A DNA stretch of 41,759 nucleotides from positions 1 to 41,759 of the IMG/VR virus record IMGVR_UViG_3300042878_001971, one strand, 5' to 3'. Positions 27,551 to 27,722 of the stretch are shown in pieces. A program made the translations under genes and the position numbers. The number at the start of each line of letters is the position of its first letter. Position 1 is the first letter of the stretch. The DNA is from a virus. Below the pieces are notes generated by a model. It had not been told where the DNA came from. It was given only the letters and a program-made list of their open reading frames with translations, and made no database searches.

Positions 27551-27620
27551 AGCGGTCAGCGGTCAGCGGTCAGCGGTCAGCGGTCAGCGGTCAGCGGTAA
27601 GCGGTCAGCGGTCAGCGGCG
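27551..27620. repeat. Heptamer tandem array AGCGGTC x10
   Basis: Seven-base direct repeats: units 1-6 and 8-9 are AGCGGTC, unit 7 is AGCGGTA and unit 10 is AGCGGCG. Degenerate copies extend upstream (27525-27550). It lies in the noncoding divergent region between the minus operon and the integration module. Short iterons are typical of replication-initiator, partition or terminase binding sites; the spacing of seven is not helical, so a single 14- or 21-bp site read twice or three times is also possible. Confidence 0.85.
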
Positions 27621-27642
27621 ACCAGGTCGCCGACCTGGTCGC
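27618..27642. repeat. Near-perfect inverted repeat beside heptamer array
   Basis: 12-bp arms GCGACCAGGTCG and CGACCTGGTCGC separated by one base. Each arm is itself partly palindromic (GACCAGGTC), a cruciform-prone arrangement. Confidence 0.75.
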
Positions 27643-27663
27643 GGTCGGCCGGTCGTGAACATG

Positions 27664-27722
27664 GTCGGCTATCGAAATACCCCGCGGCCGACGGCCGTCG
27701 GCTATCGAAATACTCGCGGCCG
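27664..27722. repeat. 17-bp direct repeat pair around a 16-bp palindrome, with two copies of the dispersed motif
   Basis: GTCGGCTATCGAAATAC occurs at 27664 and 27697 (33 bp apart), each followed by a short spacer and GCGGCCG. Between them, 27687-27702 is a perfect palindrome (GCCGACGG with CCGTCGGC). Each repeat includes the reverse complement of GTATTTCGATA, the dispersed motif. A weaker third relative (TGCGAAATACC) is at 27749. Confidence 0.85.

What the first reader, a model, noticed from the sequence alone, without database searches (positions are those of the whole stretch)
27551..27722. Heptamer array, nested palindromes and motif pair in the divergent region
In 172 bp there are ten AGCGGTC repeats, a 12-bp-arm inverted repeat, a 16-bp palindrome and two 17-bp direct repeats that each contain the dispersed motif. 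This is the densest repeat cluster in the genome and is noncoding. It could be a second origin, a partition (centromere-like) site, a pac/cos-like site or an enhancer for the adjacent integrase and operon.
Basis: seen in the sequence. Interest (0 to 1): 0.75.

Follow-up and report, generated by a model that had tools for sequence, protein, structure and literature searches.

The report
Phage DNA-packaging (cos) site with repeats
The repeat cluster lies beside the spot where this unclassified bacterial virus cuts its DNA for packaging into particles; the twin 17-base repeats look like docking sites for the packaging machinery, while the eye-catching seven-base array is a fast-changing spacer that gains and loses copies.

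Summary
The repeats are real. The heptamer array, 12-bp inverted repeat, 16-bp palindrome and twin 17-bp repeats were all found; the longest exact lag-7 run is 42 nt against a maximum of 14 in 60 simulated genomes. Relatives in IMG/VR explain the region. About 110-280 bp from these repeats lies a cohesive-end site, cosN, at window 27832-27844. Ten int-side contigs from several metagenomes stop there, nine of them within 4 nt of each other. At least six from the other side start at the base 13 nt away, one still carrying Illumina adapter. The 13 nt between (GTTCGNAGCCGGG) are missing from most ends but present in contigs that cross, which fits a 3' overhang. The 17-bp repeats are two of three R sites (GAGTATTTCGATAGCC) at fixed distances from cosN, although the DNA between them is unrelated. 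In a natural recombinant with 96-99% identical portal, capsid and integrase, TerL is swapped and the R sites are gone. This points to a lambda cosB-like role, untested. The heptamer array is not conserved: two relatives identical over 1000 bp differ only by five heptamers. It is a slippage-prone spacer. Still unexplained: R copies are scattered genome-wide, as repressor stoperators are. The origin, partition and integrase-enhancer readings are not supported.

The parts
27832..27844 (-). cosN cohesive-end sequence GTTCGTAGCCGGG (minus strand), inferred 13-nt 3' overhang
   Evidence: Contigs of relatives end on both sides of exactly this 13-nt block; crossing contigs contain it
27812..27828 (.). 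GC-rich stem CCCCGCG-GCA-CGCGGGG abutting the HTH-side end; sequence varies but stays self-complementary in many relatives
27801..27810 (-). Conserved box GGAAGGACCC, 33-34 nt from the start of cosN in crossing relatives
27759..27800 (.). Spacer between GGAAGGACCC and R1: length constant (41-43 nt in relatives), sequence unrelated and often palindromic
27746..27760 (-). R1 (variant GTGGTATTTCGCAAG), cos-proximal R site
27701..27715 (-).
27668..27682 (-). R3 (GGGTATTTCGATAGC), the other 17-bp repeat; 33 bp from R2
27687..27702 (.). 16-bp palindrome in the R2-R3 spacer; shared only by close relatives
27618..27642 (.). Inverted repeat with 12-bp arms, present only in the closest relatives (L041-L043)
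27518..27618 (.). Heptamer array (degenerate units 27518-27554, regular AGCGGTC units 27550-27618): hypervariable spacer
27490..27517 (-). Conserved box GATTCTCACTTACCAAGTGTCCGGTCGG between array and promoter, function unknown
27437..27458 (.). 22-bp perfect AT-rich palindrome CACACAAAAATATTTTTGTGTG; A/T-tract core kept in relatives; UP-element-like (inference)
27402..27430 (-). Sigma-70-like promoter TTGACG-17-TACTAT for the HTH gene, with a TATCCGATGGGATA dyad in the spacer
26792..27376 (-). HTH_17/Xis-like DNA-binding protein P0003 (194 aa); HTH domain nearly invariant in 17 relatives; absent from the one relative whose cos lacks R sites
28023..28718 (+). HNH/endonuclease VII-like gene 178 bp from cosN; no match in five other genomes of the family

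Best explanation
The region is one terminus of the packaged phage chromosome: a cos site. Terminase makes a staggered cut across GTTCGTAGCCGGG (27832-27844), giving cohesive ends with a 3' overhang of about 13 nt. On the HTH-gene side, three same-direction R sites (27668-27682, 27701-27715, 27746-27760) at fixed distances from the cut act as the cosB-like anchor where the packaging complex assembles. The heptamer array beyond R3 is not part of the machinery; it is a replication-slippage-prone spacer between the cos module and the promoter module of the HTH gene. Shown by sequence: the shared contig ends and their position, the fixed R geometry, R loss together with a TerL swap, and array copy-number change. 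Inferred: that the ends are terminase-cut virion ends, overhang polarity, which protein binds R, and that R is needed for packaging.
For: (1) Shared ends. With the integrase terminator as ruler, crossing contigs have GTTCG at +52 (+47 to +63 in a few divergent ones); of ten int-side contigs, nine end at +52 to +55 and one at +60; three or four carry an extra A as expected from adapter A-tailing. On the HTH side L041, L044, L052, L055 and L057 start at the same GCA base, 21-22 nt before GGAAGGACCC, and L065 also at 21; L055 has TCTTCCGATCT adapter fused at that base. In four metagenomes both halves of such a genome stop there. (2) The 13 nt absent from most ends are conserved in crossing contigs, also in phages with different integrases. 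(3) Geometry: GGAAGG to R1 54-56, R2 88, R3 121 in most of about 20 loci, with 41-43-nt spacers only 22-37% identical between types. The seven-base core TATTTCG was the search key; the bases around it, not used to find sites, are also conserved in 53 sites. (4) Natural recombinant G002: portal 96%, capsid 99%, RuvC 97%, LexA-like 96%, integrase 98% identical to the window, but TerL 61%, and its cos keeps cosN and GGAAGGACCC yet has no R site and no full-length P0003. (5) Array: L041 and L043 have 0 mismatches over 1000 bp and differ by 35 bp = five heptamers; other relatives have periods 7, 8, 10, 11, 14, 18 or none. Lambda precedent: cosB with three TerS-binding R sites; packaging-initiation specificity lies in TerS-cosB (PMC4669245).
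Against: No read data: ends are inferred from assembled contigs. Some contigs also break in the arrays or hairpins (L046, L051, L054, L056, L063, L068), so repeat-induced breaks exist too. A few int-side or HTH-side ends run 2-13 nt into the overhang (L175, L194, L203, L213, L061). TerL has a lambda gpA-type nuclease domain, whose best-known members leave 5' overhangs, whereas the gap argues for 3'. The cos is about 9 kb from TerL. No small terminase was identified. R copies are dispersed genome-wide, which lambda cosB sites are not. The TerL-R link rests on one recombinant, in which P0003 is also missing. Contigs and sites share ancestry, so counts are not independent events.
Confidence: 0.72

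Rival explanations
1. The R sites are stoperator-like binding sites of a phage repressor (P0003 or another HTH protein), as in cluster A mycobacteriophages, and the cluster near cos only controls transcription at the right genome terminus.
For: Motif is asymmetric and dispersed in every family member tested, 2 to 7 copies of the 12-mer per record, none for the reversed control; top 8-mer in the window; found in coding regions in different frames and strands; by my hand tally, 23 of 32 dispersed copies point with late transcription (one-sided binomial 0.01, copies not independent). Cluster A has 20-30 repressor sites oriented with transcription and Pleft near the right terminus (PMC6550527).
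Against: Does not explain the fixed phasing of R1-R3 to cosN with unrelated spacers of constant length. The three sites lie upstream of, not at or after, the leftward promoter. G002 keeps dispersed copies in genes up to 98% identical, and in one 62% identical, while lacking R at cos, so the two site classes can be uncoupled.
Confidence: 0.3
2. Contig ends at 27832-27844 are a prophage attachment site (attP core), not cos, and R sites are integrase arm sites.
For: Region lies at the integrase 3' end as in lambda; Xis-like HTH gene on the other side; GTTCGNA resembles a tRNA T-loop.
Against: Adapter and A-tail residues at the ends; most ends lack the 13 nt rather than sharing a core; cosN and R occur with very different integrases (G005, 33% identical; G003, none found) and R is absent beside a 98% identical one.
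Confidence: 0.05
3. The array and palindromes are a replication origin or partition centromere.
For: Direct repeats, AT-rich palindrome, noncoding region; RacA/BldC-like HTH fold of the neighbouring protein.
Against: Unit sequence, period and copy number not conserved; initiator gene with its own repeats at 35466-36446; no ParA/ParB found in the scans.
Confidence: 0.05
4. Contig ends reflect assembly collapse at GC hairpins and arrays, not a physical end.
For: Some contigs do break in arrays or hairpins; the HTH-side end abuts a hairpin.
Against: Nine int-side contigs stop within 4 nt on the side without that hairpin, at the same 13-nt gap; adapter at the base in L055.
Confidence: 0.06

Closest known systems
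Lambda-type cos site (cosQ-cosN-cosB with R3-R2-R1)
   Same: Staggered-cut site with three TerS-type repeat sites on one side; lambda cosB is about 120 bp with three R sites, and packaging-initiation specificity is set by TerS-cosB (PMC4669245). TerL here has a gpA-type nuclease domain.
   Different: All three R sites point the same way (lambda R2 is inverted); inferred 3' rather than 5' overhang; cos about 9 kb from TerL; no small terminase identified; R copies dispersed in the genome.
Stoperators of cluster A mycobacteriophages (L5 type)
   Same: Asymmetric sites dispersed over the genome, mostly oriented with transcription, several near the right terminus and a leftward promoter (PMC6550527).
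   Different: Here a triplet is phased to the cleavage site; the binding protein is unknown and P0003 has a Xis/BldC-like HTH.
Heptameric tandem repeats generated by slippage
   Same: Short exact units, copy number differing between otherwise identical genomes.
   Different: Always in the same slot between R3 and the promoter box; unit replaced repeatedly within the family.

Membership tests
cos (cohesive-end) packaging site | Defined, non-permuted DNA end at one position | tested here: met
   Ends from both sides within 4 nt in many contigs; inferred from contigs, not reads
cos (cohesive-end) packaging site | Short single-stranded complementary overhang | tested here: inconclusive
   13-nt block missing from most ends but present in crossing contigs fits a 3' overhang; no biochemical proof
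cos (cohesive-end) packaging site | Cleavage by the phage terminase | not testable with these tools
   TerL gene present; activity needs an assay
Lambda-type cosB | Several repeat sites at set distances from cosN | tested here: met
   R1-R3 geometry conserved
Lambda-type cosB | The repeat sites are bound by the small terminase | not testable with these tools
   No small terminase identified; no binding data
Lambda-type cosB | R2 inverted relative to R1 and R3, IHF site between R3 and R2 | tested here: not met
   All three R sites in the same orientation; no IHF test made
Lambda-type cosB | cosB covaries with the terminase | tested here: met
   G002: TerL 61% while neighbours are 96-99%, R sites gone; one case
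Cluster A stoperator system | Asymmetric sites dispersed and oriented with transcription | tested here: inconclusive
   Dispersed: yes. Orientation 23 of 32, weak
Cluster A stoperator system | Bound by the immunity repressor | not testable with these tools
   No binding data
Phage attP | Core shared with attL/attR in a host | tested here: inconclusive
   No prophage relative found in host genomes

The most novel reading that the evidence does not exclude
P0003, a Xis/BldC-like HTH protein encoded at the cos terminus 9 kb from TerL, is the cos-recognising (small-terminase-like) partner of TerL, and the same R motif scattered through the genome gives it a second role such as silencing transcription or organising the chromosome, tying packaging and regulation to one binding site.
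Probability: 0.2. Interest if true: 0.75.

Novelty: new variant of a known kind. Interest (0 to 1): 0.45.

Why it matters
It places a genome terminus in an uncultured temperate phage family that has no close relative in GenBank phages, using only contig ends, and offers a natural TerL/cosB swap. If the dispersed R copies bind the same protein as the cos triplet, packaging and regulation would share a recognition site, which I do not know from any described phage.

Tried and rejected
Megablast of the window's 12-kb core and tblastn of P0003 against GenBank phages: nothing; TerL finds only distant Mu-like and other terminases at about 25% identity. Two genome-contig scans for prophages and a host (HTH profile, integrase profile): none, so host, attB and host-side over-representation of the motif (a Chi-like reading) could not be tested. 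AGCGGTC x3 in IMG/VR hits 37 contigs, none of which turned up among the family's loci, so the unit is not a family signature. Exact 16-mer GAGTATTTCGATAGCC occurs in 50 stretches of IMG/VR; about 20 are family members, and the rest is roughly what chance would give in a collection of this size (my estimate). Rfam: no RNA family. PDB sequence search for P0003: nothing; fold search: only the C-terminal HTH resembles Xis, BldC, RacA, with E above 0.1. A search for a small terminase in PHROGs, Pfam and NCBIfam found none among the ORFs scanned. Literature search for heptamer arrays at cos sites gave nothing relevant. Coding explanation of the dispersed motif rejected because copies sit in different frames and both strands, although one site (9326) may be held by protein sequence. 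Array coding rejected: the 35-bp indel is not a multiple of three.

Full report
Setting. The window is a 41,759-base IMG/VR virus record whose first and last 195 bases are 193/195 identical, so it represents an approximately 41.56-kb unit. It encodes a siphovirus-type phage: portal, fused head protease/capsid, tape measure, TerL with a gpA-type nuclease domain, replication initiator and RuvC-like resolvase, Sak4-like annealing protein and tyrosine integrase, ArdA, and an HTH_17/Xis-like protein P0003. It has no near relative among 50,697 GenBank phages; TerL matches there are about 25% identical. The host is unknown.

Observation. All listed elements are present. The heptamer array is far beyond chance (lag-7 run 42 versus a maximum of 14 simulated); the single 16-bp palindrome is not.

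Relatives. P0003 retrieves 27 loci and the integrase 42. Their upstream regions show a common order: integrase terminator, GTTCGNAGCCGGG, a GC stem, GGAAGGACCC, a palindromic spacer, three copies of GAGTATTTCGATAGCC (R1-R3), a tandem array, a box TTCTCA..T.CyAAGTGTCC, an A/T tract, promoter, P0003. In the window an HNH gene is inserted between integrase and cos; it has no match in five other genomes of the family.

Physical end. Using the integrase terminator as ruler, contigs that cross have GTTCG at +52 in the close relatives; of ten contigs that stop there, nine stop at +52 to +55 and one at +60. From the other side, contigs start at GCA, 21-22 nt before GGAAGGACCC; L055 carries Illumina adapter joined to that base. 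The 13 nt between are missing from most ends. End repair removes 3' overhangs, so I infer a 13-nt 3' overhang; a 5' overhang would have been filled in and appeared in both contigs. In four metagenomes both partners were recovered (for example 31,663 + 9,160 bp in 3300034019). Prophage att ends are unlikely: adapter and A-tail residues, no shared core, and the 13-mer is kept in phages with very different integrases. Assembly breaks in arrays and hairpins also occur in this family (L056, L063, L068), and a few ends run into the 13-mer, so not every end is informative.

R sites. R1, R2, R3 lie at 54-56, 88 and 121 nt from GGAAGG in most of about 20 loci, while the GGAAGG-R1 spacer has constant length (41-43 nt) and only 22-37% ungapped identity between types. 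Bases flanking the TATTTCG search key are also conserved. G002 (contig of L071) is a natural recombinant: portal 96%, capsid 99%, RuvC 97%, LexA-like 96%, integrase 98% identical to the window, TerL 61% (54-61% to all R-bearing members, which are 69-98% among themselves). Its cos retains GTTCGCAGCCGGG and GGAAGGACCC but has no R site, and the full-length P0003 gene is missing, a 334-aa gene taking its place. This argues against integrase and the LexA-like protein as the partner of the cos R sites and leaves TerL (with an unidentified small subunit) and/or P0003. In lambda, cosB holds three TerS sites and packaging-initiation specificity is TerS-cosB (PMC4669245). The analogy is good but R orientation, overhang polarity and distance to TerL differ.

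Dispersed copies. TATTTCGA is the top 8-mer in the window (13 versus 0.8), the 12-mer GTATTTCGATRG occurs in all 14 records tested with no hit for the reversed control, in different reading frames and strands. A hand tally gives 23 of 32 copies oriented with late transcription (binomial 0.01, copies partly orthologous and so not independent). This resembles stoperators (PMC6550527). The cosB model does not predict it. G002 keeps dispersed copies without cos R sites. I regard dispersal as the main unexplained point.

Array. Between R3 and the box, relatives carry 83-420 bp filled with tandem arrays of periods 7, 8, 10, 11, 14 or 18 with different units, or none. L041 and L043 are identical over 1000 bp apart from 35 bp, five GGTCGAT units, 12 versus 7. 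The array is therefore best read as a slippage-prone spacer; a role of its length or presence is not excluded but not needed.

Verdict. A cos site (about 0.9), R sites as its cosB-like anchor (about 0.6), array as spacer (about 0.8), overall 0.72. New variant of a known kind.

Noticed in passing
27490-27517: Box TTCTCA..T.CyAAGTGTCC upstream of the HTH promoter, conserved in more than 20 relatives with different integrases and in shortened form in G002; function unknown.
   Followed up: partly
35922-36036: 21-bp direct repeats and a pyrimidine-rich tract inside the replication-initiator gene; candidate replication origin, lambda-O-like.
   Followed up: partly
window 4708-39691, 11 sites outside cos: Dispersed CGAAATAC/GTATTTCG copies in coding regions, both strands; binding protein and role unknown.
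   Followed up: partly
28023-28718: HNH/endonuclease VII-like gene inserted between integrase and cos in this phage and one relative, absent from five other genomes of the family.
   Followed up: partly
30965-31330: CsrA-like regulator gene in a phage genome.
   Followed up: no
25327-25419: ARAGORN tRNA-Pro (agg) call antisense to the leftward operon; not checked.
   Followed up: no
1-195 and 41565-41759: Terminal repeat of the record, 193/195 identical; two mismatches suggest strain variation in the closing overlap, inside the portal gene rather than at cos.
   Followed up: partly
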